The notes: generated by a model from the sequence alone, not told the origin. DNA of 64,000 nt from Solirubrobacteraceae bacterium (GCA_029263125.1 JAJCYD010000048.1:62001-126000); one strand, 5' to 3'. Counted from the first letter of the stretch, positions 3,621 through 56,267 are shown. Program-made: numbers and translations.

Positions 3621-5321
3621 ATGGCAGCCGTCGACACACCCGTTCGCATCCCGGAGATCACCGCGCACGATGTGGCGCCCGAGGCCACGGGATGGGTCTC
3701 GTGGGTCACGACGACCGATCACAAGCGGATCGGGATCATGTACCTCGTCACGACGTTCGTCTTCTTCCTGCTGGGAGGCGTCGAGGCGCTGCTGATGCGG
3801 ATTCAGCTCGGTGCGCCGGACAACACGTTCCTGACGCCGTCGACGTACAACGCGCTGTTCACGCTGCACGGCACGACGATGGTCTTCCTGTTCGTCGTCC
3901 CGATCATGGCCGGCTTCGCCAACTACTTCCTGCCGCTGATGATCGGCGCCCGCGACATGGCGTTTCCGAAGCTCAACGCGCTGTCCTACTGGCTGCTGCT
4001 CGCGGGCGGCATCGTCTTCTACGGCTCGCTGTTCTTCTCGCCGCCCGAGGCCGGGTGGACCTCCTACGCGCCGCTGAGCAGCAGCGCCTTCTCGCCGACC
4101 AGCGGCATCGACGCATGGATCTTCCTGATCCACCTGACGGGCATCTCGTCGCTGCTGGGAGCGATCAACTTCTACGCGACGATCGCCAACATGCGAGCGC
4201 CCGGCATGGGCTGGGGACGGCTGCCGCTGTTCGTCTGGTCGATCCTCGTCTACGCCATCCTGCTGATCCTCGCGCTGCCGGTGATCGCCGGCGCGGTGAC
4301 GCTGCTGCTCACCGATCGCCACTTCGGAACGGGCTTCTTCGACCAGAGCCAGGGCGGCGACCCGCTGCTGTGGCAGCACCTCTTCTGGTTCTTCGGTCAC
4401 CCCGAGGTCTACATCATGATCCTGCCGGGCTTCGGGATCATCTCCGAGGTCCTGCCCGTGTTCGCGCGCAAGCCGATCTTCGGCTACAAGGCGATCGCGG
4501 CGTCCACCGTCACGATCGCGTTCCTGGCGATGCTCGTCTGGGCGCACCACATGTTCGCGACGCCGAGCGCGACGATCGTGCTGGTCTTCTTCATGATCAG
4601 CTCCTTCTTGATCGCGATACCCACCGGCGTGAAGATCTTCAACTGGGTCGCGACGCTGTGGCGCGGGACGATCGAGTTCAAGACGCCGCTGATCTTCTCG
4701 GTCGGCTTCATCTCGGTGTTCCTCATCGGCGGCATCACCGGCGTCTTTCTCGCCGTCTTCCCCGTCGACTGGCAGCTGACCGACACGTACTTCGTCGTGG
4801 CCCACCTGCACTACGTGCTCGTCGGCGGCTCGGTCTTCGCGATCTTCGCCGGGATCTACTACTGGTTCCCGAAGATGACCGGCCGGATGCTCGGCGAGAG
4901 CATGGGCAAGTGGTCCTTCGGGTTCATGTACATCGGCTTCAACGTGACGTTCCTCATCCAGCACGCCATCGGCCTGGACGGCATGCCGCGGCGCGTCTAT
5001 GAGTACCCCGACGTCGGCAACCTCGCGATCTACAACCTGATCTCGACGGTCGGCTCGTTCATCCTGGCGATCGGCATCGGCCTGACGGTCGTCAACGTCG
5101 TGCGTTCGCTGAAGGTCGGCGTGAAGGCCGGCCCTGACCCGTGGAAGGCCAACACGCTGGAGTGGTTCACGCCATCGCCGCCTCCGGTCAACAACTTCGA
5201 CATCATCCCGCGCGTGCGCTCCGTCGAGCCGATGAAGGACGTCCGCCGCCAGGTCGCGCGCCAGACCGGCGTCGCGGTCGAGCTCGGCGCGGACCCGGCG
5301 ATGTCCGAGCCCCGGGCCTAG
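3621..5321 (+). CDS. ctaD: Cytochrome c oxidase subunit I, A1-type (cluster 1)
   Basis: Catalytic haem-copper subunit (566 aa) that reduces O2 to water and pumps protons at the inner membrane. Twelve-helix subunit I fold. The CuB region reads GHPEVY with His260 and Glu262, the gated glutamate of the D-channel that defines A1-type oxidases. AHHMF supplies the further CuB histidines, and PTGVKIF contains the K-channel lysine. HLHYVLVGG holds the haem ligands. I chose ATG 3621 over GTG 3615 because the Shine-Dalgarno AGGAG (3607-3611) is 9 nt from 3621 but only 3 nt from 3615. No subunit III gene lies in this cluster. Confidence 0.95.
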   Translation: MAAVDTPVRIPEITAHDVAPEATGWVSWVTTTDHKRIGIMYLVTTFVFFLLGGVEALLMRIQLGAPDNTFLTPSTYNALFTLHGTTMVFLFVVPIMAGFANYFLPLMIGARDMAFPKLNALSYWLLLAGGIVFYGSLFFSPPEAGWTSYAPLSSSAFSPTSGIDAWIFLIHLTGISSLLGAINFYATIANMRAPGMGWGRLPLFVWSILVYAILLILALPVIAGAVTLLLTDRHFGTGFFDQSQGGDPLLWQHLFWFFGHPEVYIMILPGFGIISEVLPVFARKPIFGYKAIAASTVTIAFLAMLVWAHHMFATPSATIVLVFFMISSFLIAIPTGVKIFNWVATLWRGTIEFKTPLIFSVGFISVFLIGGITGVFLAVFPVDWQLTDTYFVVAHLHYVLVGGSVFAIFAGIYYWFPKMTGRMLGESMGKWSFGFMYIGFNVTFLIQHAIGLDGMPRRVYEYPDVGNLAIYNLISTVGSFILAIGIGLTVVNVVRSLKVGVKAGPDPWKANTLEWFTPSPPPVNNFDIIPRVRSVEPMKDVRRQVARQTGVAVELGADPAMSEPRA

Positions 5322-5346
5322 CCGCGGCCGCGAGATCGACCGCCTG

Positions 5347-6258
5347 ATGGAAGCTTCACGCGTCTCCACGCCCGTTGCCCTGCCCCCGGCGGCAACCGGC
5401 GGCGTGCGCCAGGTCGTCGGTGACTACGTCGAGCTGACCAAGCCCAAGGTGCAGTCGCTGCTGCTGCTGACGACCGTCTGCTCGATGGAGATCGCGGGCG
5501 ATCCGTCGCTCGGCCTGATCGCCGTGACCGTCCTCGGCGGCTACCTGTCGGCCGGCGGCGCAGGCGCGGTCAACCACTACTTCGATCGCGACATCGACGC
5601 GCAGATGCCGCGTACGGCCAACCGTCCCGTGCCCAGCGGTCGCGTCGCGCCGCGCGCGGCGCTGATCTACGGGATCGTGCTCGCGCTGGCGTCGTTGGTG
5701 CTGCTGAGCACCGCCGTCAACGTCCTTGCCGCCTCCCTGGCATTCGCGGGCTTCCTCGGATACGTCTTCGTCTACACGATGTGGCTCAAGCGGCGCACGC
5801 CGCAGAACATCGTGATCGGCGGCGCCGCCGGCGCGTTCCCCCCGCTGGTCGGATGGGCGGCCGTCACGGGCAGCGTGAGCGGCATGTCGCTGTACCTCTT
5901 CGCGATCGTCTTCTTCTGGACGCCACCGCACTTCTGGGCGCTGTCGCTGCTGATGAAGGACGAGTACGCACGCGTCGGCGTTCCGATGCTGCCGGTCGTG
6001 CGGGGCGAGCACGAGACGCGCAAGCAGATCCTGCTCTACACGTTTCTGCTCTACGCGGTGACGCAACTGCCGTTCTGCGCCGGCGGATTGGGCGTCACCT
6101 ACCTCGTCTCGTCGCTGATCCTCGGCGGCCTGTTCATCGCCGGATCGGTCGTGCTCTACCGGCGCGCCGATCGCCGCAGCGCACTGCGCCTCTACCTCTT
6201 CTCGCTCGCATATCTCGCGCTGCTGTTCGGCGCGATGGTCCTCGACGCCAAGCTCTAG
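5347..6258 (+). CDS. ctaB: Protoheme IX farnesyltransferase (haem O synthase)
   Basis: Membrane prenyltransferase of 303 aa that adds a farnesyl group to haem b to make haem O, the precursor of haem A needed by the adjacent oxidases. The prenyl-diphosphate/Mg-binding motif appears as NHYFDRDID near residues 78-86, and the second Asp-rich loop lies around WALSLLMKDEYARVGVPM. Several hydrophobic helices follow. The gene sits 25 nt downstream of ctaD in the same direction, so it is probably in the same transcript. No ctaA (haem A synthase) gene is present in the window. Confidence 0.93.
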   Translation: MEASRVSTPVALPPAATGGVRQVVGDYVELTKPKVQSLLLLTTVCSMEIAGDPSLGLIAVTVLGGYLSAGGAGAVNHYFDRDIDAQMPRTANRPVPSGRVAPRAALIYGIVLALASLVLLSTAVNVLAASLAFAGFLGYVFVYTMWLKRRTPQNIVIGGAAGAFPPLVGWAAVTGSVSGMSLYLFAIVFFWTPPHFWALSLLMKDEYARVGVPMLPVVRGEHETRKQILLYTFLLYAVTQLPFCAGGLGVTYLVSSLILGGLFIAGSVVLYRRADRRSALRLYLFSLAYLALLFGAMVLDAKL

Positions 6259-40794: not shown

Positions 40795-41994
40795 TCAGGC
40801 CACGAACTCGATCTCGACCGGTTCGCCGGCGCCGATCGCGTCGCGGTCGCCGGGGACGAGGGCCAGCGCGTCGATGCCGAGCATCGAGGTGAGGATGTGG
40901 GAGTCCTGCGAGCGCGTGGGGCGCACATGCCAGCCGTCGTCCTGCAGCGACGAGCGGCAGCGCACGATCGTCGTGCGCCCGCGCGCGCCGGGAAGCTCCT
41001 CGTCTGCGGTCGCCATCGTCGGATGCACGACGCGCTCGCGGCCGAGCATGGCGTCCAGCGCCGGGACGACGAACAGCCGGAATGCCATCAGCGCCGACAC
41101 GGGGTTTCCGGGCAGGGCGAAGACGAGCGTGCCCTCCTCGTTGATCGCGAAGGTCGTCGGGCGGCCGGGCTTGAGCTTCACGCCCGCGAAGACCTCGCGG
41201 AAGCCGAGGCGCTTCAGCGCGGGGCGCACGTGGTCGTGTGGTCCGACCGACACGCCGCCGGTGGTGATCAGCATGTCGACGTCGCGCAGCGCCGCGCGCA
41301 GCACCGACACCGTCGCCTCGAGGTCGTCGCCGACGCGAACCCGTGCGACCAGATCGCCGCCGGCACGATGCACGGCGCCGCCGAGCGCGGGGCCGTTTGA
41401 ATCGCGGATGCCGCCGGGCGCCAGCGGCTTGCCCGGGTCGGTCAGCTCATCGCCGGTGCCGGCCAGCGCCACGCGCGGGCGGCGCACGACCATCGGGCGC
41501 GGGATGTTCAGCGACGCGAGCACGCCCAGCTCGGATGGGCCGAGCACGGATCCTGCGTGGATGACGAGCGATCCGGCGAGGATGTCCTCGCCGGCGGGAC
41601 GCACGTGCTTGGCGACCGGCACGACCCCGTCGACCACCACGGTCGCGTCCTCGGCCGTCGTCTGCTCCTGGGGCACGATCGCGTCCGCGCCGTCGGGAAC
41701 GGGCGCGCCGGTGGAGATGCGAACGGCCGTGCCGGTCCGGACGGTCACCCCCGCCTCGCTGCCGGCCTTCGCCTCCCCGATGAGCTCCAGGCGCGCGGCT
41801 CCGCTCGCCGTGTCGGCGGCGAGGATCGCGTAGCCGTCCATCGCCGAGGCATCAAACGGCGGGACATGGTTGGGCGCGGCCGCATCCTCGGCGAGCGCGC
41901 GGCCGAGCGCCTCGTCGAGGCCGACCTCCTCGGAGCCGAGCACCGCGGCATGCTCGAGCACCGCGTTGCGCGCCTCGTGGATCGAGACGGCCAC
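40795..41994 (-). CDS. moeA: Molybdopterin molybdenumtransferase
   Basis: Inserts molybdate into adenylylated molybdopterin. 399 aa in MoeA domain order: N-terminal FDASAMDGYAI (domain I/II), central MogA-like domain with TTGGVSVGPHD and FALPGNPVSALMAF, then the C-terminal beta-barrel (domain IV). The gene starts (GTG) immediately after the DUF6457 stop. Molybdenum cofactor is needed by the nitrate reductase at 48951-52496. Confidence 0.94.
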   Translation of the reverse strand: MAVSIHEARNAVLEHAAVLGSEEVGLDEALGRALAEDAAAPNHVPPFDASAMDGYAILAADTASGAARLELIGEAKAGSEAGVTVRTGTAVRISTGAPVPDGADAIVPQEQTTAEDATVVVDGVVPVAKHVRPAGEDILAGSLVIHAGSVLGPSELGVLASLNIPRPMVVRRPRVALAGTGDELTDPGKPLAPGGIRDSNGPALGGAVHRAGGDLVARVRVGDDLEATVSVLRAALRDVDMLITTGGVSVGPHDHVRPALKRLGFREVFAGVKLKPGRPTTFAINEEGTLVFALPGNPVSALMAFRLFVVPALDAMLGRERVVHPTMATADEELPGARGRTTIVRCRSSLQDDGWHVRPTRSQDSHILTSMLGIDALALVPGDRDAIGAGEPVEIEFVA

Positions 41995-42239: not shown

Positions 42240-43355
42240 TCAGACGCCCAGCAGCGCGTCGATCGTGGCGCTCGCGCGGCCGTCGGACACGGTCTCGCCG
42301 GCCAGCGCCGCTCCGGCGCTGACGCTCGCGCAGCGACCGGCGACGTACAGGCGCAGCCCGGCGCTCAGCAGCGCGGTCTGCGCTGCGACGCCGTGCTCGT
42401 CGCCGGCGGCGATGGCCCGCGTGAGGTCCGCGGCGACTGCCGGATCGCGGTCGCCGCGCAGCAGGGCGCCCGGCGACTCGGGCAGCTCGATCGGTCCCAG
42501 CGAGTCCGATGCCGACGGCCTCCCCGCGCGCATGACGTCCGCTCCCTCCATGCCGCGCACCGTGACGACGCGGTGCGCGCCGAGCAGCGAGAGCGCACCC
42601 TGCAGGCGCTCGCGATAGATGCTGTGTGTGTGGCCGATGACGAAATGCGTCGCGCCGAGATGGTCGACGAGCTTCTCGGCGCTGTGCAGCGGGCCGCGCA
42701 ACCCGATCTCGTCACGCAGCGTCGCCAGGGCGTCCCAGCCTGCAATCGCCGCGCCGGCGTGCACGAGCGCGACGCCGCAGCGGTCGAGCATCGCCCGCGA
42801 CTCGGCGGGCTCGGGCCGGGCCGGGCCTCCCAGAGCGGCGAGGACGTCGGCGGGCGTCGTGCCGTGCTTGGGACCGAGCGTCGCGCCGCAGTGCACGACG
42901 ACGCGGGCGCCGGCGGCGGCCGCCAGCACGGCGGCGGCGAGCGACAGGTGGGGCGCGTCGACCATGCCGTCGTAGGCCCCGGCGCAGGCGATCGTCGGAC
43001 CCCGGTCCGCCGCGGGGCTTTCGGAGACGGTCGACGCCGCGTCGCGCAGCGCCTGCGTCATGCCGGCCAGCTCGGCCGGAGACTCGCCCTTGATGCGCAT
43101 CGCGACGAGGAAGGCGCCGGCCTGCACGGGACTGACGTCCCCGGCCAGTAGCGCGGCCGTCGCCGAGCGAGCCTCCTCGAAGGTCAGCGCGCGGCTGCCG
43201 CGCGGCCCGGTCCCGACCGCCTTGATGACGGCGCGAAAGCCGCCGTAGCCGGTGCGCCCCGCGCGCTGGGAGAGCGTCGGCGCGATGGCGATCGGACCGC
43301 TGCTCCCGCGCGGTGGCTCAGGGTCCTTCGCTTCGATGCCCGCCTGCAGGCTCAT
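42240..43355 (-). CDS. Anthranilate phosphoribosyltransferase-like protein (TrpD2/YbiB-like)
   Basis: A 371-aa nucleoside phosphorylase/phosphoribosyltransferase class II protein. The N-terminal helical domain has SPVQAGAFLVAMRIKGESPAEL. The phosphate-binding CAGAYDG and the catalytic region VVHCG-x5-KHGTTPADVL are TrpD-like, but the canonical GTGGD is replaced by CAGAYDG, as in TrpD2/YbiB-type proteins, which are not tryptophan enzymes. No trp genes are near. It is coupled to the GlnR-like regulator upstream (ATGA), placing it in nitrogen metabolism. Confidence 0.8.
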   Translation of the reverse strand: MSLQAGIEAKDPEPPRGSSGPIAIAPTLSQRAGRTGYGGFRAVIKAVGTGPRGSRALTFEEARSATAALLAGDVSPVQAGAFLVAMRIKGESPAELAGMTQALRDAASTVSESPAADRGPTIACAGAYDGMVDAPHLSLAAAVLAAAAGARVVVHCGATLGPKHGTTPADVLAALGGPARPEPAESRAMLDRCGVALVHAGAAIAGWDALATLRDEIGLRGPLHSAEKLVDHLGATHFVIGHTHSIYRERLQGALSLLGAHRVVTVRGMEGADVMRAGRPSASDSLGPIELPESPGALLRGDRDPAVAADLTRAIAAGDEHGVAAQTALLSAGLRLYVAGRCASVSAGAALAGETVSDGRASATIDALLGV

Positions 43356-44026
43356 GTTCCCTCCCAGCGGTAGCCGACGCTGCGTACGGTCTTGATCCGC
43401 GACGCGTTCTCCGAGCCCAGCTTCGCGCGGACGCGGCGGATGTGGACGTCGACCGTCCGCGCGCCCCCGTAGTAGTCATAGCCCCACACGCGGTTGAGCA
43501 GCGCCTCCCGAGAGAACACGCGCTTGGGGTGGGTGACGAGGAACTTCAGCAGCTCGTACTCCATGTAGGTGAAGTCCACCGGCCGGCCGTCGATGGCGAC
43601 CTGGTAGGTGGCAAGGTTCATCTCCAGCGAGCCGACGCGGACGATGTCGTCGTGGTCGATGCCGTTGACGGCCCGTCGTGCGCGCGCGATCCGCGCCTGC
43701 AGCTCGCCCGCGGAGAAGGGCTCGATGAGCAGCTCGTGGCCCTCGGAGACACCGAGACCCTCGGCCAGCGCGCCCGATGCCATCGCGACGAGCACCGGCA
43801 CCTCGCCGAGATCCTCGTCGGCCGCCAGCCGCGCGCACAGCTCCGCGCAGGACGGCTGCTCCAGCCCGGAGGCGAGGATCACGGCCAGTGCCGGCGCCTT
43901 GCTGTCGCCGTCGGGCGGGCGCAGCGTGCCGTTGGCCGCGACGCGGTGCGGGCTGAAGCCCAGCTCGGCCAGCAGCCGCGACGTGGCATCGCCGCCCTGC
44001 GTGCCGTAGATCCAGGCGTCGCTCAC
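43352..44026 (-). CDS. GlnR-like OmpR-family winged-helix regulator
   Basis: A 224-aa regulator. The C-terminal winged helix (about 125-222) is strongly conserved: FTYMEYELLKFLVTHP, SREALLNRVWGYDYYGGARTVDVHI and TVRSVGYRWEG. The N-terminal receiver-like domain (1-115) lacks an evident phospho-acceptor Asp where it should follow the strand ALAVI. Such atypical receivers are typical of GlnR, the actinobacterial nitrogen regulator. GTG start overlaps the upstream glutamine-synthetase-like gene and its stop overlaps trpD2. Confidence 0.8.
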   Translation of the reverse strand: MSDAWIYGTQGGDATSRLLAELGFSPHRVAANGTLRPPDGDSKAPALAVILASGLEQPSCAELCARLAADEDLGEVPVLVAMASGALAEGLGVSEGHELLIEPFSAGELQARIARARRAVNGIDHDDIVRVGSLEMNLATYQVAIDGRPVDFTYMEYELLKFLVTHPKRVFSREALLNRVWGYDYYGGARTVDVHIRRVRAKLGSENASRIKTVRSVGYRWEGT

Positions 44027-45363
44027 AGCAGTCGCAGGTAGCGGGAACGATCGAACTCGGTCACGGTGCGCCGCTCGGCATCGGTCTCGCGGCGCTTGTT
44101 GGCGACGTAGGCGTCGACGAGCCGGTCGCCGAGCGTCTCGCGAACGAGCTCGGAGGCATCGAAGAGGTCGGTTGCCTCGCGCAGGTCCAGCGGTAGGCGC
44201 GTGCCCGAAGCGGCGTCGTCGACGCTCTCGGCCTGAAGCTCATAGCCGCGCTCGATGCCGCGCAGGCCTGCCGCGAGGACGAGCGACAACACGAGGTAGG
44301 GGTTGCAGGCGGGGTCCGGAGAGCGCAGCTCGAAGCGAGCACCCTCCACGCGCCCCGGCCGGCGCGACGGGACGCGGACGAGCGCCGCAGCGCCGCGGCG
44401 CGTCCAGCTGATGGTCTCCGGCGCCTCGAAACCGGTGGCCAGGCGGCGGTAGGAGTTGATCCACTGGTTCGTGACGGCGGTCAGCTCGCCGGCATGGGCG
44501 AGCACCCCGGCGAGGAAGGCGCGGCCGGTCGGAGAGAGCGCCTCGTCGGGCTCGGCGTCGTGGAAGGCGTTGCGATCACCTTCGAACAGCGAGATGTGCA
44601 TGTGCATGCCCGAGCCGGGATGGTCCTCCAGGGGCTTTGGCATGAACGTCGCGTAGGCACCGAGCTCGTGGGCGGCCTCCTTGACGGCGATCCGGAACGT
44701 CGTGACGGCGTCGGCCATCGACAGCGCGTCGTCGTGGGCGAGCTGGATCTCGTGCTGGGACGGCGCGACCTCGTGGTGGGAGGCCTTGACGGGGATCCCC
44801 ATCTGCTCGAGGTAGTCGATCGTGCGGCGACGAAAGTCCGAGCCGACGTCCAGCGGCGTGAGGTCGAAGTAGGCGCCGTCGTCGAGGGTCACCGGGGCGG
44901 CGCCGTTGGTGCCCAGCGGGCCGAAGATGAAGAACTCGACCTCACAGCCGACCTGCATCGTGTAGCCCAGCGCCCCCGCCTGGTCTAAGACGCGGCCCAG
45001 CGCCGCGCGCGAGTCGCCGCCGAACGGCTCGCCGTCGGGCTGGCGCACGTCGCAGAACATGCGCGCGACGAGCGAGTCCGGGCGCCACGGGAGCACCTGA
45101 AAGGTGCGCGGGTCGGGGTGGGCGATGACGTCGTGCTCGCGCAGCCGCGACGCGCCCTCAAGCGAGGATCCGTCGAGGCCGACGCCCTCGTCCAGCGCGG
45201 ATTCCAGCTCGGAGACGGGGATCGAGACGCTCTTGAGCAGGCCGAGCACGTCGATGAACCACAGGCGGATGAACTTCACGCCGCGCTCCTCGACTGTGCG
45301 CAGCACGAACTGGCGGTGACCGGACACTGCGTCGAAGGTATGGCCATGACGGCGGTCTGTCAT
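44023..45363 (-). CDS. Glutamine synthetase family protein (GSI-alpha-like)
   Basis: A 446-aa member of the glutamine synthetase superfamily, first gene of an operon with a GlnR-like regulator. Conserved segments: GLDGSSLEG, EVEFFIFG, HHEVAPSQHEIQ, HPGSGMHMHIS, FEAPETISW and FELRSPDPACNPYL. The block that reads NRSALVRVP in true enzymes is GAAALVRVP here, so the Arg that contacts the ATP gamma-phosphate (Arg339 in Salmonella numbering) is missing. The adenylylation motif is absent. It may make glutamine or another gamma-glutamyl amide. ATG 45363 is preferred; GTG 45408 is an alternative. Confidence 0.85.
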   Translation of the reverse strand: MTDRRHGHTFDAVSGHRQFVLRTVEERGVKFIRLWFIDVLGLLKSVSIPVSELESALDEGVGLDGSSLEGASRLREHDVIAHPDPRTFQVLPWRPDSLVARMFCDVRQPDGEPFGGDSRAALGRVLDQAGALGYTMQVGCEVEFFIFGPLGTNGAAPVTLDDGAYFDLTPLDVGSDFRRRTIDYLEQMGIPVKASHHEVAPSQHEIQLAHDDALSMADAVTTFRIAVKEAAHELGAYATFMPKPLEDHPGSGMHMHISLFEGDRNAFHDAEPDEALSPTGRAFLAGVLAHAGELTAVTNQWINSYRRLATGFEAPETISWTRRGAAALVRVPSRRPGRVEGARFELRSPDPACNPYLVLSLVLAAGLRGIERGYELQAESVDDAASGTRLPLDLREATDLFDASELVRETLGDRLVDAYVANKRRETDAERRTVTEFDRSRYLRLL

Positions 45364-45416
45364 TGGCCCGCCGGTCCATAGCCACTCGACATCGGGTCGA
45401 GCGCTCACCCCCGTCG

Positions 45417-48153: not shown

Positions 48154-48768
48154 CTACGAGCGCCGGACACGCGCCCGATGGCGCCGGGCCTTGGCGACGT
48201 TGCCGCAGCCGCGCATCGAGCACCACTGGCGCGCCGATGTCGGGGAGCGGTCGTAAAAGCGTGCGCTGCAGGTGTCCGAGGCGCAGATGCGCACACGCGA
48301 GCGCTGGTCGGTGCCGAGCATCCGCGCGGCGTCCAGCGCGAGCGTGCCGAGGGCGTGGCGAAACGGATCCACCGGGGTCGCCGGGTGCAGCACGGGGCTG
48401 CCGTCGGCGTCACGTGCGAGCGTCTGCCTCGTGACGGCGCATGGCATCCATGCGTCGATCGTCGCGAGGGCTTCGGGCTCGACCGCTTCGCCGCTGGTCA
48501 GCGCGGCGACGGCGACGTCGATGCTCTCGCGCAACCGGCGAGCGTCGCGCAGCTGCGCGGTCGAGGGGCGCGCGTCAGAGCCCGGCGGCAGGAGGTTCGC
48601 GCGCTCCAGCCAGCACGTGAGGTCGGCTGGCGTCACGAGTGTCTCGACCCTACGCCACCAGCGCTCGCGAAGCGTATTGACGAAGTCCATCGCTGGCCGG
48701 CCGCCGAGCCAATACCAGTACGGCTCGCCGGATGCCAGCGGGAGCTCGAGGTCGTCAGGCAGGTCCAT
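48154..48768 (-). CDS. CGNR zinc-finger transcriptional regulator
   Basis: A 204-aa protein of the ABATE/CGNR family. The N-terminal domain (about 1-140) has FVNTLRERW. The C-terminal zinc finger reads CASDTCSARFYDRS followed by WCSMRGCGNVAKARRHR, with four Cys ligands and the CGN-x3-R signature. Such proteins are likely DNA-binding regulators. Its ATG overlaps a TAACCTG motif shared with the cupin promoter. Divergent from the nitrate reductase gene. Confidence 0.88.
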   Translation of the reverse strand: MDLPDDLELPLASGEPYWYWLGGRPAMDFVNTLRERWWRRVETLVTPADLTCWLERANLLPPGSDARPSTAQLRDARRLRESIDVAVAALTSGEAVEPEALATIDAWMPCAVTRQTLARDADGSPVLHPATPVDPFRHALGTLALDAARMLGTDQRSRVRICASDTCSARFYDRSPTSARQWCSMRGCGNVAKARRHRARVRRS

Positions 48769-48800: not shown

Positions 48801-48950
48801 TCGCGGCACCGAGACGTCGATCAGCGTCTGCACACGGAGTCCTACGACAGCTGCGGTCGGGCGGTTCAGGTCCTGGCGCGCTCGGGCCGGCGGCCGTTCA
48901 CACAGCGTTCATCGATCCGACGCGGCAGGGAAACTGCCGATCCGCACCCT

Positions 48951-51900
48951 GTGGCGCAGATGCAGAGCACCCCGACCCAGTGTCCGTACTGCGGCGTCGG
49001 TTGCGGCCTCCTGGCCGACGTGCAGGACGGGCGGCTCATCAGCGTCCGCGGCGACCGCCACCATCCCGTCAACCGCGGCCGCACCTGCCGCAAACCGCTC
49101 GGGCTGCCGTTCGCCGTCGAGGCTCCCGACCGCGCCACCGTGCCATTGTGGCGCTCCGATCGCGACGCTCGCTTCGAGCCGACCGGCTGGGAGGACGTGC
49201 TCGCAACGGTCGCCGGGCGCATGCGGGCGATCGTCGGGGAGCATGGCCCTGACGCCGTCGCGTTCTACATCTCCGGACAGCTGCTGACCGAGGACTACTA
49301 CGCGATCAACAAGCTCGCCAAGGGCTTTCTCGGCACGAACAACGTCGACTCAAACTCGCGCTTGTGCATGTCCTCAGCCGTCGCCGGCTACAGCGGCGCG
49401 TTCGGCTTCGACGGCCCGCCGCCTGCCTACGCGGACATCGCGCTGTCGGACTGCTTCCTGCTGCTCGGCACGAACACGGCGGCATGCCATCCGATCGTCT
49501 GGTCGCGCATCCGCGACCGTCAGGCCGAGGGCGCCTTCGTCATCTGCGCCGACCCGCGCGCGACGAAGACCGCGCAGGGTTCTGACCTGCACCTGCCGGT
49601 GCGCCCCGGCACCGACCTCGCGCTGCTCAGCGCGATGCTGCATGTCGTCGACCGCGACGGATTGCTCGACGAGGACTTCATCACTCGCCACACCGGAGGT
49701 TGGGGCGAGGCACGGGCGGTCGCCCAGCAATGGACGCCCGCCCGTGCCCAGGGGGTCTGCGGCGTCGACGCCACGCTCATCGAACAGGCGGCACATCGGT
49801 TCGCCGGCGCGGGCGCCGCGATGGCGCTGTGGTCGATGGGCGCCAACCAGTCGACCGTCGGGACGCTGAAGAACCGTGCGCTGATCAACCTCTGCCTCGC
49901 GACCGGCCAGATCGGCCGGCCGGGCTCGGGACCGCTGTCGCTCACCGGCCAGCCCAACGCGATGGGGGGCCGCGAGACGGGCGGCCTCTCGCACCTGCTG
50001 CCCGGCTACCGCAAGGTGGTCGACGCCGAGGACCGCGCCGCGATGGCCGCCCACTGGGGCGTCGACGTCGAGGCGCTGTCGGCCACACCGGGGCTCCCCG
50101 CCGTCGCGCTCTTCGACGCGCTCGAGGAGGGCCGGGTCAAGGCCGTCTGGATCATGGCCACCAACCCGCTCGTCTCGCTGCCCGACGGCCAGCGAGCTCG
50201 CGCGGCGTTGGAACGCGCGGAGCTCGTCGTCGTGCAGGACCCCCACCACCCGACCGAGACCTCGTCGCTGGCGCATGCCGTGCTGCCCGCCGCCGCATGG
50301 CCCGAGAAGGAGGGCGCGATGACGAACTCCGAGCGCCGCGTCGGGCTCGTGCGACGCGTCGTCGCGCCGCCTGGAGAAGCCCGTGCGGACTGGGAGATCG
50401 TCGCGGGACTCGCGCGCCACCTCGGCCATGGAGACGCCTTCGCATGGCCGGACGCCGCCGCGGTCTTCGACGAGTTCGCCGCCTGCACCGCCGGACGCCC
50501 GTGCGATCTCAGCGGCGTCTCGCACGAGCGCCTGCGCCGAGAGGGCGGGGTGCAGTGGCCATGCCCGGCGCAGCCCGTCGACGAGCATCCCGGCACGCCG
50601 CGCCTGTACGCCGACAAGCGCTTCCCCACCCCCGACGGCCGCGCGCGCTTCGCCCCCACCCCCCACGTCGACCCGGCCGAGACGCCCGACCCAGACTTCC
50701 CGATCCTGCTGACGACCGGCCGCGTCGCCGACCAGTGGCACACGATGACGCGCACCGGACACTCCCCCGCGCTGCTCGCGGCGGCGGGCCTCCCGACCGT
50801 GTCGGTGCATCCCCGCGATGCCGAGGCGGCGGGCTTGCAGGACGGTGGGCAGGCGCGTATCGCGTCGCGCCGTGGGACGGCGCGGTTTGCGGTCAGCTTC
50901 GACGACACGCTGCCCAACGGCGTCGCGTTCGCGCCGTTTCACTGGGGCGCCCTGCATGCCGACGCCGGCGCGGGCACGCTCAACGCGCTGACGATCAGCA
51001 CCGTCGACGAGACCTCCGCGCAGCCCGAGCTCAAGGCCGTCGCGGTGCGCCTGCAGCCGGTGCGCAAGCGCGACGAGCCGGTGTCGAGGCGCGCTCCGCC
51101 CAAGCCCCGCCGGCTGGTCGTGGTGGGAACCGGCATGTCGGGCCTGGCGGTCGTCGAGGAAGCGCTGCGCCGGCGGCCCGCCGAGCACTGGAAGATCGTC
51201 ATGCTCGGCGAGGAGCCGGGCCCCACCTACAACCGGGTGCTGCTGTCCAAGCTGCTGGCCAACAGCGCCGGTCCGGGCGAGCTCGAGCTGAGACCGCTGT
51301 CGTGGTACGCCAGGCACCGAGTCGACCTGCGCGGAGGGTGCAGCGCCTCATCGCTGGATCTCCAGCAGCGCAGCGTGCTCGACGAATCGGGTGGCAGCCA
51401 CCCATACGACGCACTGGTCATCGCCACGGGATCGCGCGCGTTCGTCCCGCCGATCCCGGGTGCAGACCTACCGCACGTCGACGTCTTCCGCACGTGGCGC
51501 GACGCCGACGCGCTCGCCGCCACGCCGGCCGGCGCGCGCGCGGTCGTCGTCGGCGGCGGCCTGCTCGGCCTGGAGGCGGCGGCCGGCCTGCACGCCCGCG
51601 GCGTCGGCGTGACCGTCGTCGAGCTCGCCGGCCACCTCATGAACATGCAGCTCGACCACGGAGCGGCGGCGATCCTGCGGCGCGATCTCGAGCGCCAGGG
51701 CATCGCGTGCCTGCTGGGCCGCAGCGCATCGCGCATCCAAGCCGACCGCGTCGTGCTCGACGACGCCAGCGAGCTCGCGTGCGAGCGCGTGGTCGTCGCC
51801 GCGGGGGTGCGCGCCGAGACGACGCTGGCCCGTGCCGCGGGCCTGCAATGCGAGCGCGGGATCGTCGTCGATGACGAACTGCGGGCCAGCGCCCCCGGCG

Positions 51901-52496
51901 TGTGGGCGGTCGGCGAATGTGCCGAGCATCGCGGCACCGTCTACGGCCTGTGGGCGCCCCTTGCCGAGCAGGCGCGCGTCGCGGGCGCCCAGATCGCGGG
52001 CGACCCCGGGGTCTTCCACGGCGCGGTGCAGGCGACGACGCTGAAGGTCTCGGGCGTTGACGTCTACGCCGGCGGCGGCTCGGCGGGCGCGGCGCCCGAC
52101 GGTCACGACGAGATCGTCTTCAGCGACACGCGCAACGGCATCTACCGGCGGCTCGTCCTCGACGGCGACCGCCTGACCGGCGGCGTGCTCGTCGGGGACG
52201 CCAGCGCGGCGCGGCGGCTGACCGAGCTGCTGCGCTCGAATTCCGACGTGCCCGCGGACATCCGCGCGGCCGGCGGCGGCGCCCCGCCGCAGCCGCTCGC
52301 CGCCGACCCCACGGCGACACTGTGCTCATGCAACGCGGTCACCGTCGGCGAGGTTCAGGCGGCGATCCGCCGCGATGGACTGCGAAGCGTCGCCCAGGTC
52401 GGAGCGCGTACGCGCGCCGCCACCGGCTGCGGCGGATGCACAAGCGACGTGGAGGAACTGCTGGCGGCCGTGGCCGCGGTCGCCGACGTGTCCTGA
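48951..52496 (+). CDS. Assimilatory nitrate reductase fused to FAD/NAD(P)H reductase and BFD [2Fe-2S] domain
   Basis: A 1181-aa multidomain enzyme. Residues 1 to about 710: molybdopterin nitrate reductase of the NasA type, with the N-terminal [4Fe-4S] cysteines (Cys11, Cys14, Cys18, Cys46), RLCMSSAVAGY (Mo-ligand Cys) and the C-terminal molydopterin-binding domain (LLTTGRVADQWHTMTRTG). About 720-1110: FAD/NAD(P)-binding NirB/NasB-like reductase (VVVGTGMSG; VVVGGGLLGLEAA; VWAVGECAEH). About 1120-1170: BFD-like [2Fe-2S] domain (CSC; CGGC). It could take electrons directly from NAD(P)H. GTG 48951 is used; ATG 48960 is equally possible. Confidence 0.92.
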   Translation: MAQMQSTPTQCPYCGVGCGLLADVQDGRLISVRGDRHHPVNRGRTCRKPLGLPFAVEAPDRATVPLWRSDRDARFEPTGWEDVLATVAGRMRAIVGEHGPDAVAFYISGQLLTEDYYAINKLAKGFLGTNNVDSNSRLCMSSAVAGYSGAFGFDGPPPAYADIALSDCFLLLGTNTAACHPIVWSRIRDRQAEGAFVICADPRATKTAQGSDLHLPVRPGTDLALLSAMLHVVDRDGLLDEDFITRHTGGWGEARAVAQQWTPARAQGVCGVDATLIEQAAHRFAGAGAAMALWSMGANQSTVGTLKNRALINLCLATGQIGRPGSGPLSLTGQPNAMGGRETGGLSHLLPGYRKVVDAEDRAAMAAHWGVDVEALSATPGLPAVALFDALEEGRVKAVWIMATNPLVSLPDGQRARAALERAELVVVQDPHHPTETSSLAHAVLPAAAWPEKEGAMTNSERRVGLVRRVVAPPGEARADWEIVAGLARHLGHGDAFAWPDAAAVFDEFAACTAGRPCDLSGVSHERLRREGGVQWPCPAQPVDEHPGTPRLYADKRFPTPDGRARFAPTPHVDPAETPDPDFPILLTTGRVADQWHTMTRTGHSPALLAAAGLPTVSVHPRDAEAAGLQDGGQARIASRRGTARFAVSFDDTLPNGVAFAPFHWGALHADAGAGTLNALTISTVDETSAQPELKAVAVRLQPVRKRDEPVSRRAPPKPRRLVVVGTGMSGLAVVEEALRRRPAEHWKIVMLGEEPGPTYNRVLLSKLLANSAGPGELELRPLSWYARHRVDLRGGCSASSLDLQQRSVLDESGGSHPYDALVIATGSRAFVPPIPGADLPHVDVFRTWRDADALAATPAGARAVVVGGGLLGLEAAAGLHARGVGVTVVELAGHLMNMQLDHGAAAILRRDLERQGIACLLGRSASRIQADRVVLDDASELACERVVVAAGVRAETTLARAAGLQCERGIVVDDELRASAPGVWAVGECAEHRGTVYGLWAPLAEQARVAGAQIAGDPGVFHGAVQATTLKVSGVDVYAGGGSAGAAPDGHDEIVFSDTRNGIYRRLVLDGDRLTGGVLVGDASAARRLTELLRSNSDVPADIRAAGGGAPPQPLAADPTATLCSCNAVTVGEVQAAIRRDGLRSVAQVGARTRAATGCGGCTSDVEELLAAVAAVADVS

Positions 52497-52550: not shown

Positions 52551-53363
52551 TCAGAGGGAGCGCCGGACGCCCGTCCGGCATTTCTTGGCACGGCTGGTGT
52601 GCAGGTTGTCCAGGAACACCGCGGAGTCATAGATCCGGTCGCCCTGGTCGAAGATCGACAGGTAGAGCCGGCGGAGACCCGGCTTGACCCTGGTCGACGC
52701 CCGCAGCTTGCGGGTGGCGCCGTCGTAGGTGGTTCCCTTCGCGTGGCGGGCGCGAACGGTCGTATCGCCGACCTTGTTGACGCGAATGGGATGGCCCTTG
52801 CTGTCACGAGCGAAGTTGAGGGGGGCCGTGATCGTGGGGTCCTCCTTGGTGCCCGCGTTCCAGTTGGAGCCATCCAGCTCGGCGATGAACGCGTCGTTGA
52901 ACTCCTCGTCGACGAACTCCGGGAACTCCTCGGAGAGAAAGCGAAAGTCAAAGCTCAGGCAGTTGTCGCCGGTCGGCACGCGCAGGTCGATCCGCATGAT
53001 CACGACGTCGCGCGCACCGCGAATCGACGGACCGCGCGATTCGGTACCGGTGTCGGGCGCGTTGTTGGGGTCGTCTGCCCGGCGTGCGTTGCCGGTGGAG
53101 AGGATGCCGAACGAGCCACCCCTGGTCGGAAAGCCCGCCAGGCGCGTGGTCGACGCAGCCGCCGGCTTGGAGCTCGGCGGCAGGGCCGAGAACACGGCGC
53201 GCCTCACGAGGCCCGGCTGGCTGGCCATGGCCCGCGCGACCGGTGTCGCCGACGGATCTCGGGGATACTCGACGATCTTCGCCTGCCCGCTTGACGCCGC
53301 GATCACCGACGCCAACGCTACGGTGGTCACTGCTGGCACTGCACAACGGATTCGGACGGACAT
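52551..53363 (-). CDS. Secreted choice-of-anchor L domain protein
   Basis: A 270-aa exported protein. ATG 53363 gives a signal peptide (basic SVRIR, Ala/Val core, cleavage near SSGQAK). The mature part matches the choice-of-anchor L pattern: LSFDFRFLSEEFPEFV, NDAFIAELDGS, TAPLNFARDSKG and a C-terminal VKPGLRRLYLSIFDQGD-YDSAVFLDN. These are extracellular beta-sandwich domains of unknown ligand. It has no visible C-terminal sorting signal. It separates the nitrate and nitrite reductase genes and seems unrelated to them. Confidence 0.78.
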   Translation of the reverse strand: MSVRIRCAVPAVTTVALASVIAASSGQAKIVEYPRDPSATPVARAMASQPGLVRRAVFSALPPSSKPAAASTTRLAGFPTRGGSFGILSTGNARRADDPNNAPDTGTESRGPSIRGARDVVIMRIDLRVPTGDNCLSFDFRFLSEEFPEFVDEEFNDAFIAELDGSNWNAGTKEDPTITAPLNFARDSKGHPIRVNKVGDTTVRARHAKGTTYDGATRKLRASTRVKPGLRRLYLSIFDQGDRIYDSAVFLDNLHTSRAKKCRTGVRRSL

Positions 53364-53474
53364 CTGAGCCTTTCGGAGAGAGAGAAGCGAGCGCGCGACG
53401 GTACTCCGCGAGCCGGCCGCACGCTCCGGTAATGCCGCGCCCCGTGCACGCCGCCTGCCCGGCCAGCAGGTCCG

Positions 53475-53512
53475 TTCATCACCTGGAAACACCACCAACA
53501 CCGCGAGGAAAC
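53475..53512 (+). promoter_or_regulatory. GlnR-box-like array upstream of nirB
   Basis: Two GAAAC pentamers (53486-53490 and 53508-53512) are exactly 22 nt apart. The pentamers 11 nt before each (TTCAT, AACAC) keep part of the gTnAc a-site. This is the a-n6-b-n6-a-n6-b spacing of actinobacterial GlnR boxes. It ends 23 nt before the nirB ATG. Confidence 0.5.
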
Positions 53513-53535
53513 GGCCACCCGCCACCATCGTCGCC

Positions 53536-55953
53536 ATGAGCGAATCCGTGGTGATCGTCGGCGGTGGCATAGCCGGGCAAGCCGTCTGCGAAGCGCTGCG
53601 CGAACGCGATCCGGATGCGGCGATCACGCTCGTCTGCGGCGAAGTCAGCGCACCGTATGACCGCGTGCGGCTGTCGGAGATCCTGGTCTCCGGCGAGGAC
53701 CCCGAGACGCTTCAACTGCGTCCCGGCGAGTGGTACGCCGACCACGACGTGGAGCTGCTGCTCGGCCGCTGGGTGACCTCGGTCGACACCGACGACGGCC
53801 GCCTGGAGCTCGACGACGGCGCCGAGCTGACGTTCGACAAGCTCGTGCTCGCCACCGGCTCGCAGGCGCTGATGCCGCCGATCGCGGGCATCGACCTTCC
53901 CGGCGTGCATCCGTTCCGCGGTCCGCAGGACTGCGAGGCGATTCGCGCGGCCGCCGCCGGTGGCGCACAGCACGCCGCGGTCATCGGTGGCGGGCTGCTC
54001 GGCCTCGAGGCCGCGCGCGGGATTGCCGCTCAGGGCTGCGCGGTCACGGTCATCCACCTGCTCGACCGGCTGATGGAACGCCAGCTCGACGCCGGCGCGG
54101 CGTCGTTGCTCGCGCCCGCGCTCGCCGAGCTGGACATCGCGATCGAGTTCGACCGCAACACGACCGCGATCATCGGCCCCGAGCACGCGACCGGGCTGCA
54201 CTTCAAGGGCGGCGACCGGCTCGGCGCCGACCTCGTCGTCGTGTCGGTCGGCATCCGCCCCGAGGTCAAGCTGGCGCGCGCGATCGGCGTCGAATGCGAT
54301 CGCGGCATCGTCGTCGACGACGCGATGCGCACGAGCATCCCCGGCGTGCTGGCCGTCGGCGAGTGCGCGCAGCACCGCGGCCTCGTCTACGGGCTCGTCG
54401 CGCCGATCCACGACCAGGCGCGCGTCGCGGCCGCGACGCTCGTCGACGTCGAGGCCGCCTACCTCGGGTCGGTGCCCAGCGCCAAGCTCAAGGTCGCCGG
54501 CATCGATCTCGTCTGCGCCGGCGAGGCGGAGGGTGACCAGGAGGCCGTCGTCACCGATGGCGCCGCCGGCATCTACCGCAAGCTCGCGACGCGAAACGGT
54601 CGCGTCGTCGGCGCGATCCTGCTCGGCAACACCCGCGGATCGGAGGCGCTCGTCGCCGCGGTGCGCTCCGGCGAGCCGATCGACGACCCGCTGCAGGCGC
54701 TCGCCGACGCGTCGCTCGCCGGCCCCGCCGACCTGCCGGACACCGCGCAGATCTGCGATTGCAACGGCGTCTGCAAGGGCGACCTGATGGCGGCGGTCAC
54801 CGAGGGCGGCTGCTCCACGCCGCGCGAGGTCATGGCGGTCACCCGCGCGGGCACCGGCTGCGGCTCCTGCCGCCCGGCCGTCATCGAGATCGTCGCCGCC
54901 GCGGCCGGCGGGCTCTCCGACGAGCCGACCTATCTGTGCCCATGTCGCAAGCAGACGCGCGAACAGCTCGCCGGGCGCATCCGCGACGACGGGCTTGAGT
55001 CCGTCAGCGACGTCGCCAACGCGTGCGGCACCGGGCGCGAGTGCGGGGTCTGCAAGCCGGCGCTCGCCTACCTCGTCTCCGAGGTCAAGGCCAACCGCCA
55101 CCAGGAGGAGCGCGACGCGCGCTTCATCAACGATCGCGTCCACGCGAACATCCAGAAGGACGGGACGTTCTCCGTCGTCCCGCGGATGTACGGCGGCGTG
55201 ACGACGCCCGACGAGCTACGCCGGATCGCCGACGTCGCCGACAAGTACCACGTGCCGCTCGTGAAGGTCACAGGTGGCCAGCGCCTGGACCTCCTCGGGG
55301 TTCGCAAGCAGGATCTCCCCGCGATCTGGGCCGACCTCGGGATGCCGTCGGGACACGCATATGCCAAGGCTGTGCGGACGGTGAAGACCTGCGTCGGGAC
55401 CGAGTTCTGCCGCTTTGGCCTCGGCGACGCGATCGGCCTGGGCATCGAGATGGAGAAGGCCTGGGAAGGCCTGCATACGCCGCATAAGGTCAAGTCCGGC
55501 GTCAGCGGCTGCCCGCGCAACTGTGCCGAGGCGACGATCAAGGACATCGGCCTCGTGGCCGTCGAGGGCGGCTGGCAGGTGCGCGCCGGCGGCGCCGCCG
55601 GCGGCAACGTGCGCGAGGCCGACATCCTGGCGACCGTCGAGACCCGCGCCGAGGCCCTGCGCGTCGCAACGACGTTCCTGCAGTACTACCGCGAGAACGC
55701 CGACTACAAGGAGCGCACCTACGACTTCATCCCGCGCATCGGGCTTCAGAAGATCCGCGAGATCGTGCTCGACGAGAAGATCGGAGCGCAGCTGCGCGAG
55801 CGCCTGCAGATCGCCAAGGCCGCGACCAAGGACCCGTGGCTGGAGCGCGACGATCCCTACCACCCGCGCCAATTCTCAGACCTCGACCCGCCCGAGACGG
55901 CCGACACCGCCGAGCCCCACCTCGTCGGACCACCCGCTGGAGGTGAGCGATGA
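53536..55953 (+). CDS. nirB: Nitrite reductase (NADH) large subunit
   Basis: Reduces nitrite to ammonia in the cytoplasm. 805 aa: FAD-binding (VIVGGGIAGQAVCEAL) and NAD-binding (VIGGGLLGLEAARGIA) Rossmann domains, then two BFD-like [2Fe-2S] cysteine sets (CDCNGVC...CGSC; CPC...CGVC, the second more divergent), a ferredoxin-like half-domain and the sirohaem/[4Fe-4S] site TCVGTEFCRFG...SGCPRNCAEA. Overlaps nirD by 4 nt. A GlnR-box-like array lies just upstream. Sirohaem synthesis and nitrite/nitrate transport genes are not in the window. Confidence 0.96.
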   Translation: MSESVVIVGGGIAGQAVCEALRERDPDAAITLVCGEVSAPYDRVRLSEILVSGEDPETLQLRPGEWYADHDVELLLGRWVTSVDTDDGRLELDDGAELTFDKLVLATGSQALMPPIAGIDLPGVHPFRGPQDCEAIRAAAAGGAQHAAVIGGGLLGLEAARGIAAQGCAVTVIHLLDRLMERQLDAGAASLLAPALAELDIAIEFDRNTTAIIGPEHATGLHFKGGDRLGADLVVVSVGIRPEVKLARAIGVECDRGIVVDDAMRTSIPGVLAVGECAQHRGLVYGLVAPIHDQARVAAATLVDVEAAYLGSVPSAKLKVAGIDLVCAGEAEGDQEAVVTDGAAGIYRKLATRNGRVVGAILLGNTRGSEALVAAVRSGEPIDDPLQALADASLAGPADLPDTAQICDCNGVCKGDLMAAVTEGGCSTPREVMAVTRAGTGCGSCRPAVIEIVAAAAGGLSDEPTYLCPCRKQTREQLAGRIRDDGLESVSDVANACGTGRECGVCKPALAYLVSEVKANRHQEERDARFINDRVHANIQKDGTFSVVPRMYGGVTTPDELRRIADVADKYHVPLVKVTGGQRLDLLGVRKQDLPAIWADLGMPSGHAYAKAVRTVKTCVGTEFCRFGLGDAIGLGIEMEKAWEGLHTPHKVKSGVSGCPRNCAEATIKDIGLVAVEGGWQVRAGGAAGGNVREADILATVETRAEALRVATTFLQYYRENADYKERTYDFIPRIGLQKIREIVLDEKIGAQLRERLQIAKAATKDPWLERDDPYHPRQFSDLDPPETADTAEPHLVGPPAGGER

Positions 55954-56267
55954 CCTACGCCTGCCGCATCGACGACGTGCCACTCGGCGAAGGACGAGTC
56001 GTGACCCTCGACGGCCAGCGCATCGCCGTCTTCCGCGCGGCCGGCGGCTGGTACGCGCTGGACGCCGCCTGCCCGCACATGGGCGGACCGCTGGCCGACG
56101 GGATCGTGTGCGACCGCGCGGTCATCTGCCCACTGCACGACCGCCGCTATGACCTGCAGACCGGCGAGCCGCTCGGCGCCGGCGACCCGGTGGCAGTGCA
56201 TGCCGTCGAGGTGCGCGGCGACCAGGTCTTCGTGCGGGTCAGCACGCGCGAGGCTGTCGCCGCCTGA
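55950..56267 (+). CDS. nirD: Nitrite reductase (NADH) small subunit, Rieske-type
   Basis: A 105-aa Rieske-fold subunit that assists NirB. It has the [2Fe-2S] ligands CPHMGG (about residues 41-46) and CPLHDRRYD (about 60-68). The ATG overlaps the nirB stop (ATGA), so the two are made in equal amounts. It ends 3 nt before the convergent antiporter gene. Confidence 0.95.
   Translation: MTYACRIDDVPLGEGRVVTLDGQRIAVFRAAGGWYALDAACPHMGGPLADGIVCDRAVICPLHDRRYDLQTGEPLGAGDPVAVHAVEVRGDQVFVRVSTREAVAA

What the first reader, a model, noticed from the sequence alone, without database searches (positions are those of the whole stretch)
48951..52496. Self-contained nitrate reductase: NasA fused to an NAD(P)H/FAD reductase and [2Fe-2S] domain
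One 1181-residue frame carries a complete molybdopterin nitrate reductase, a NirB/NasB-like FAD/NAD(P)H module and a BFD cysteine domain. In well-studied systems the reductase is a separate protein (NasB/NasC) or ferredoxin. The fusion would remove the need for a separate electron donor. No frameshift or internal start explains it as two genes.
Basis: partly seen in the sequence, partly recalled or inferred. Interest (0 to 1): 0.65.

Follow-up and report, generated by a model that had tools for sequence, protein, structure and literature searches.

The report
Nitrate reductase with built-in NAD(P)H module
In one order of soil actinobacteria the enzyme that turns nitrate into nitrite carries, in the same protein chain, its own NAD(P)H-powered electron supply, apparently copied from a nitrite reductase gene like the one next door; the arrangement seems to have arisen once and is kept across the order, but nobody appears to have tested it in the laboratory.

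Summary
The frame is real: one 1181-codon ORF (probable start ATG 48960, 1178 aa) with a complete NasA-type molybdenum nitrate reductase, an FAD/NAD(P)H module and a BFD [2Fe-2S] domain. It heads a nasA-nirB-nirD cluster near glutamine synthetase and an OmpR/GlnR-like regulator. It is no artefact: 29 genomes of the order (own included, three families) hold the same architecture in one frame, identity down to 53%; no intact unfused NasA was seen there. Trees show one origin of the NasA part, sister to unfused NasA of another actinobacterial class. The reductase part is an actinobacterial NirB front half, not the proteobacterial stand-alone NasB/NasC reductase (AU p 8e-67). Likely event: the front of nirB was copied onto nasA. 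Self-contained bacterial nitrate reductases are already known (mycobacterial NasN), but with a diflavin module and in a distant NasA clade; this is a separate, apparently uncharacterised solution. A GlnR-type operator precedes nirB (the only perfect match in the genome), a variant precedes nasA, and near-matches precede narK. NAD(P)H-dependent activity and self-sufficiency are inferred, not shown.

The parts
48951..52496 (+). Fused assimilatory nitrate reductase, NasA + NirB-type reductase + BFD (1181 codons; probable true start ATG 48960)
   Evidence: Single open frame; Pfam domains; conserved one-frame fusion in the order; conserved start position
48960..51062 (+). NasA catalytic part: [4Fe-4S] Cys11/14/18/46, Mo ligand Cys139-Met140, bis-MGD domains (to about residue 704)
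   Evidence: Pfam; residues invariant in 43 NasA sequences; closest PDB structure periplasmic nitrate reductase NapA 2v45/2jio by fold and sequence
51102..52250 (+). FAD/NAD(P)H oxidoreductase module, NirB front half (residues about 718-1100)
   Evidence: Pyr_redox_2 + Rubredoxin_C; TIGR02374 NirB model 1-469; PY tree
52302..52478 (+). BFD-like [2Fe-2S] domain, Cys1125, 1127, 1160, 1163 (residues about 1118-1176)
   Evidence: Fer2_BFD 57.6 bits; four Cys invariant in 16 fused homologues
48897..48934 (+). Predicted operator of the fused gene: TTCAC-n6-TTCAT-n6-GACGC-n6-GAAAC, 11-nt pitch
   Evidence: Conserved at the same distance from the start codon in relatives; weaker match than the nirB box
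53475..53512 (+). Predicted GlnR-type operator of nirB: TTCAT-n6-GAAAC-n6-AACAC-n6-GAAAC
   Evidence: Only perfect match in the 3.75 Mb genome, control 0; same place in relatives
53536..55953 (+). NirB, NAD(P)H nitrite reductase large subunit (Pyr_redox_2, two BFD, NIR_SIR)
   Evidence: Pfam; TIGR02374 792 bits over cut-off 578
55950..56267 (+). NirD-type Rieske protein, start overlaps end of nirB
   Evidence: Rieske; TIGR02378 70.9 bits, just under cut-off 74.65
44023..45408 (-). Glutamine synthetase, conserved neighbour
   Evidence: Gln-synt_N/C; context of relatives
43352..44026 (-). OmpR/PhoB-family regulator with no recognised receiver domain, candidate GlnR-like regulator
   Evidence: Trans_reg_C only; context of relatives

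Best explanation
A cytoplasmic assimilatory nitrate reductase that carries its own electron supply. Proposed path: NAD(P)H reduces FAD in the NirB-like module; electrons pass singly through the BFD [2Fe-2S] cluster to the N-terminal [4Fe-4S] cluster and on to Mo-bisMGD (ligand Cys139), where nitrate becomes nitrite; NirB/NirD then make ammonium and glutamine synthetase fixes it. It arose in the ancestor of this order (Solirubrobacterales, Thermoleophilia) when a copy of the front half of an actinobacterial nirB (FAD-NADH module plus first BFD) was joined to the end of nasA. Shown here: domains, cofactor-binding residues, single frame, conservation, clades, gene neighbourhood, operator-like sequences. 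Inferred: cofactor occupancy, electron path, NAD(P)H dependence, self-sufficiency, regulation.
For: Domains and cofactor motifs. NirB model continuous over 722-1175. Full-length one-frame fusion without internal stop in 29 genomes of the order and 6 more with one stop flagged (three of these checked: an intact frame). Fused NasA forms one clade (100), sister to unfused NasA of another actinobacterial class that sits in a nasA-nirB-nirD operon (99). Reductase module groups with actinobacterial NirB front halves (98/90); grouping with proteobacterial NasB rejected, p-AU 7.8e-67. Conserved cluster with NirB, NirD, GS and regulator. In P. denitrificans NasC receives NADH electrons via the NirB homologue NasB and NasG (PMC5424462), so NirB is a plausible ancestral donor. 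Predicted structure has three folded parts joined by low-confidence linkers at about 710-716 and 1107-1119.
Against: No biochemistry for any member. Nothing rules out that the fused module also needs or serves another partner. Solirubrobacter soli, which has the gene (L039), was reported not to reduce nitrate to nitrite in phenotype tests (PMC6741124, citing Kim 2007), though such tests miss repressed or fully assimilatory activity. The exact NirB donor is unresolved: same-order NirB is favoured (93/86), NirB of the sister class not rejected (p 0.32). The predicted model is weak in the reductase module (few aligned rows) and gives no cofactor distances.
Confidence: 0.82

Rival explanations
1. 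The fusion exists, but its module is mainly a docking or storage device and electrons still come from NirB/NirD or a ferredoxin, as in Paracoccus NasC or cyanobacterial NarB.
For: NirB and NirD are encoded next door and co-conserved; Paracoccus NasC is served by NasB/NasG (PMC5424462).
Against: FAD, NAD and four [2Fe-2S] Cys motifs are kept across the order and even divergent second copies keep a shortened four-Cys BFD, as expected of a working reductase.
Confidence: 0.1
2. Two genes that only look fused: a missed frameshift or an internal start making NasA and reductase separately.
For: One MAG (L183, G774) has the halves in different frames with a stop in the linker, and one genome (L136, G258) has a frameshift inside the Mo part. 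Nonomuraea has NasA and a Pyr_redox-BFD protein as two touching ORFs.
Against: One open frame in 29 genomes from independent assemblies, with a linker free of stops.
Confidence: 0.03
3. The catalytic part is not a nitrate reductase but a formate dehydrogenase-like enzyme (best NCBIfam hit is Fdh-alpha).
For: TIGR01591 Fdh-alpha 547 bits, above the NasA models.
Against: That score is below the family's cut-off of 666; the Mo ligand motif is Cys-Met, as in all 42 other NasA sequences aligned, not Cys/Sec-His as in formate dehydrogenase (own knowledge); it sits in the NasA clade and next to nirBD. The same genome has a separate Fdh-alpha over cut-off (L002, 781 bits), far away in the tree.
Confidence: 0.02

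Closest known systems
NasN, diflavin NADPH nitrate reductase of Mycobacterium smegmatis (MSMEG_4206) and relatives; same layout in proteobacterial 'bifunctional nitrate reductase/sulfite reductase flavoprotein'
   Same: One polypeptide with NasA catalytic part and its own NAD(P)H module; actinobacterial; GlnR-linked (PMC11162112, PMC7816997, PMC10704036).
   Different: Module is Flavodoxin_1 + FAD_binding_1 + NAD_binding_1 and no BFD (L169, L091); its NasA part lies in a distant clade. So the two fusions are independent.
Two-protein NADH nitrate reductases: Klebsiella NasA + NasC, Bacillus NasC + NasB, Bradyrhizobium NasC + Flp
   Same: Same kinds of domain: Mo subunit and an FAD-NAD(P)H Pyr_redox protein (PMC4724949; L036 in Cupriavidus).
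   Different: Reductase is separate; in proteobacteria the BFD sits directly on NasA (L036); their reductase is not the closest kin of the fused module.
Paracoccus NasC fed by NasB (NirB) and NasG (PMC5424462)
   Same: NirB-type NADH module supplies electrons for nitrate reduction.
   Different: There the module is shared with nitrite reductase; here a NirB front half is built into the nitrate reductase.
Unfused NasA of another actinobacterial class (L163-L168)
   Same: Sister NasA clade, nasA-nirB-nirD order.
   Different: NasA about 740-790 aa, no reductase or BFD domain.

Membership tests
NasA/NarB/NasC assimilatory nitrate reductase | N-terminal four-Cys [4Fe-4S] motif and Mo-bisMGD domains | tested here: met
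   Molybdop_Fe4S4, Molybdopterin, Molydop_binding; C11, C14, C18, C46 invariant
NasA/NarB/NasC assimilatory nitrate reductase | Cysteine Mo ligand followed by Met | tested here: met
   C139-M140 invariant in 43 sequences
NasA/NarB/NasC assimilatory nitrate reductase | Falls in the NasA clade, apart from formate dehydrogenase | tested here: met
   Tree
NasA/NarB/NasC assimilatory nitrate reductase | NCBIfam NasA/NasC model over its curated cut-off | tested here: not met
   NF047855 505 bits against 1100, NF041323 507 against 1000; these equivalog models were evidently built for narrower groups, so this says it is not one of those named subfamilies
NasA/NarB/NasC assimilatory nitrate reductase | Nitrate reduction, cytoplasmic location | not testable with these tools
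   The frame begins just before the first cluster motif, leaving no room for a signal peptide; no assay
NasN-type diflavin nitrate reductase | Flavodoxin (FMN), FAD_binding_1 and NAD_binding_1 domains behind NasA | tested here: not met
   Absent, present in L169 and L091
NirB | Front half: Pyr_redox_2, Rubredoxin_C, BFD in this order | tested here: met
   TIGR02374 positions 1-469
NirB | Sirohaem/[4Fe-4S] nitrite reductase half | tested here: not met
   No NIR_SIR in the fused protein
Two-protein NasA + NasB/NasC system | Separate reductase protein of the NasB/NasC lineage | tested here: not met
   One frame; NasB grouping rejected
GlnR regulon | a-b-a-b box gTnAc-n6-GaAAc-n6-GtnAC-n6-GAAAc before the gene (PMC10704036) | tested here: inconclusive
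   Matching pitch and b-sites before nirB, variant before nasA; a-sites differ (TTCAY), and binding and the regulator's identity are untested

The most novel reading that the evidence does not exclude
An uncharacterised, order-wide class of single-polypeptide NAD(P)H nitrate reductase, made independently of NasN by copying the front half of nirB onto nasA, so that nitrate and nitrite reductase in one cluster run on paralogous NAD(P)H modules; the co-substrate (NADH or NADPH) may have switched within the family, since the acidic residue expected of NADH enzymes is present in half of the members and replaced by His in the rest.
Probability: 0.7. Interest if true: 0.55.

Novelty: new variant of a known kind. 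Interest (0 to 1): 0.47.

Why it matters
Which protein feeds electrons to bacterial assimilatory nitrate reductase differs from lineage to lineage and is often unknown. Here sequence names the donor and shows how it got there: a piece of the next enzyme of the pathway was copied and attached. It is a second, independent bacterial route to a self-contained nitrate reductase beside NasN, in common soil actinobacteria whose nitrate use is poorly known, and a one-gene NAD(P)H nitrate reductase would be handy for assays and biocatalysis.

Tried and rejected
Fdh-alpha reading of the Mo part: under cut-off, wrong active-site motif, wrong clade. Frameshift or two-gene reading: excluded by conservation. 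Proteobacterial NasB as source of the module: rejected. Fusion outside the order: none in 80 named genome loci, the top 40 of 1723 plasmid records, 396 phylum genomes or 39 genomes of the sister class; these are samples ranked by NasA similarity. Rfam: no RNA family in the window. Strict GlnR pattern GTNAC-n6-GAAAC: no more than chance in the window; the element was found from the conserved C-terminal tails instead. An alignment mixing NasA-only and reductase-only rows for folding was misaligned and dropped; the model used has only three rows over the reductase. Literature search found no description of this architecture, but the library lacks most subscription papers and the original NasN paper.

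Full report
Observation. The window holds one open frame, 48951-52496 (+), 1181 codons. Pfam finds, in order, Molybdop_Fe4S4, Molybdopterin, Molydop_binding, Pyr_redox_2, Rubredoxin_C and Fer2_BFD. Same-genus homologues begin where the window has ATG 48960, so the protein is probably 1178 aa. NirB follows at 53536-55953 and NirD at 55950-56267. A CGNR/ABATE-type regulator (48154-48768, minus) and a desaturase lie upstream; glutamine synthetase and an OmpR-family regulator lie at 43352-45408.

Identity of the catalytic part. The best NCBIfam score is Fdh-alpha, but under its cut-off. The active-site motif is RLCMSSAVAG, with Cys139-Met140 invariant in 43 NasA sequences, as are the four cluster cysteines. 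The closest solved structures by sequence and by fold are periplasmic nitrate reductases (2jio; 2v45, TM 0.93 over the target, 36% identity). In the tree it lies in the NasA clade, far from the genome's own formate dehydrogenase L002. It is a nitrate reductase by every sequence test available.

Identity of the reductase part. The NirB model TIGR02374 matches residues 722-1175 continuously to its positions 1-469: FAD-NAD module plus first BFD, stopping before the sirohaem half. Identity to the NirB next door is 42%.

Is the fusion real and how common? In 299 genomes of the class, 26 have this NasA and all belong to three families of one order (my count). In all 232 held genomes of the order, 49 have it; 29 (own included) are full length in one frame with no stop, and 6 more have one stop flagged, of which the three I checked are intact frames. 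The other matches are cut by contig ends or frameshifted: L136 has a frameshift, L141 lacks its N-terminus in frame, and L183 has the halves in different frames. No intact unfused NasA was seen in the order. Named members are Conexibacter sp. DBS9H8 and Solirubrobacter soli, which place the window in Solirubrobacterales, Thermoleophilia; the genome itself is unnamed. Outside the order the architecture was not met in 80 named loci, 396 genomes of the phylum and 39 of a sister class.

Origin. NasA tree (118 rows): all fused sequences form one clade (100) that is sister (99) to unfused NasA of family f23 of another class of the phylum, where nasA is followed by nirB and nirD. The two non-fused labels inside the clade are a contig end (L145) and a frameshift (L136). 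Diflavin enzymes, including an actinobacterial one (L169), form a distant clade. Reductase tree (57 rows, careful): fused modules group with NirB front halves of Actinomycetota (98/90), nearest to same-order NirB (93/86). Forcing them with proteobacterial stand-alone NasB is rejected (p-AU 7.8e-67); forcing them with f23 NirB is not (p 0.32). So the donor was an actinobacterial nirB, probably but not certainly the neighbour. In Paracoccus the NirB homologue already donates electrons to nitrate reductase through NasG (PMC5424462), so the fusion would fix in one chain a contact that may have existed before; this last step is inference.

Mechanism. Proposed route: NAD(P)H, FAD, [2Fe-2S] (Cys1125, 1127, 1160, 1163), [4Fe-4S], Mo, nitrate. 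All ligand residues are conserved in the 16 aligned fusions. The AlphaFold2 model (mean pLDDT 84, pTM 0.68) shows a confident NasA part and a less confident reductase, with low-confidence linkers at about 710-716 and 1107-1119, compatible with a mobile module; only three rows covered the reductase, so orientation is not informative. The residue at the end of the second NAD-site strand is Glu in the window protein and 7 of the other 15 aligned fusions, and His in 8. By general knowledge of such folds Glu favours NADH, so co-substrate may differ between branches.

Regulation. Several fused proteins end in a conserved tail (ARNTSD..KP). The DNA shows why: the 3' end of the gene contains TTCAY-n6-GAAAC-n17-GAAAC just before nirB. 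In the window the element is intergenic, at 53475-53512, ending 23 bases before the nirB ATG. A search of the whole genome with two mismatches gave this one perfect match and two overlapping two-mismatch hits about 150 bases before a NarK-family gene (301 bits, cut-off 312), with none for the reversed control. A variant with the same 11-nt pitch, TTCAC-n6-TTCAT-n6-GACGC-n6-GAAAC, lies at 48897-48934, 25 bases before ATG 48960, and is conserved in place in relatives. The published GlnR box is gTnAc-n6-GaAAc-n6-GtnAC-n6-GAAAc (PMC10704036): same pitch and b-sites, different a-sites. The linked OmpR-family gene is a candidate regulator; its receiver region is not recognised by Pfam. The short distance to the start codon would fit leaderless transcripts with the box over the -35 region; this is inference.

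Comparison and novelty. Self-contained nitrate reductases are known: NasN of mycobacteria is NADPH-dependent and diflavin (PMC11162112, PMC7816997). The present enzyme differs in module, cofactors and ancestry. It is therefore a new variant of a known kind. I found no paper describing it; a genome paper that included S. soli lists only narGHIJ-type nitrate reduction genes and notes that S. soli was not seen to reduce nitrate (PMC6741124). Absence from a partial library is weak evidence.

Verdict. Observation confirmed; interpretation partly supported. Moderately interesting: a clean, datable fusion with an identified type of donor gene, conserved across an order, awaiting one straightforward assay.

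Noticed in passing
L138:4926-7043(+), L139:4565-6853(+), L140:5089-7203(+): The same reductase + BFD module, nested inside the fused clade (97/90), sits behind a hydrophobic N-terminal domain with four conserved His and no Pfam match: possibly a membrane cytochrome-b-like protein driven by NAD(P)H. Absent from the window's genome as far as seen.
   Followed up: partly
L142:6178-10458(+), L143:7420-11658(-): Genomes of genus g15 carry a second, divergent fused copy with a shortened BFD that keeps four Cys.
   Followed up: partly
L037:2474-4513(+) and 4513-5904(+): Nonomuraea gerenzanensis has NasA and a Pyr_redox-BFD protein as two touching genes, a two-gene counterpart of the fusion, but its sequences are distant.
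   Followed up: partly
window 53475-53512; relatives listed: An operator-like element doubles as coding sequence for the C-terminal tail of the fused protein in several genera, while in the window's genus it is intergenic.
   Followed up: yes
window 52551-53627 (-): A 358-aa ORF without any Pfam match lies on the opposite strand between the fused gene and nirB, separating them by about 1 kb; ORFs of similar size and strand occur there in L119 and L120.
   Followed up: no
window 40795-41994 (-): MoeA (molybdopterin biosynthesis) is encoded in the same neighbourhood and recurs in same-genus genomes.
   Followed up: no
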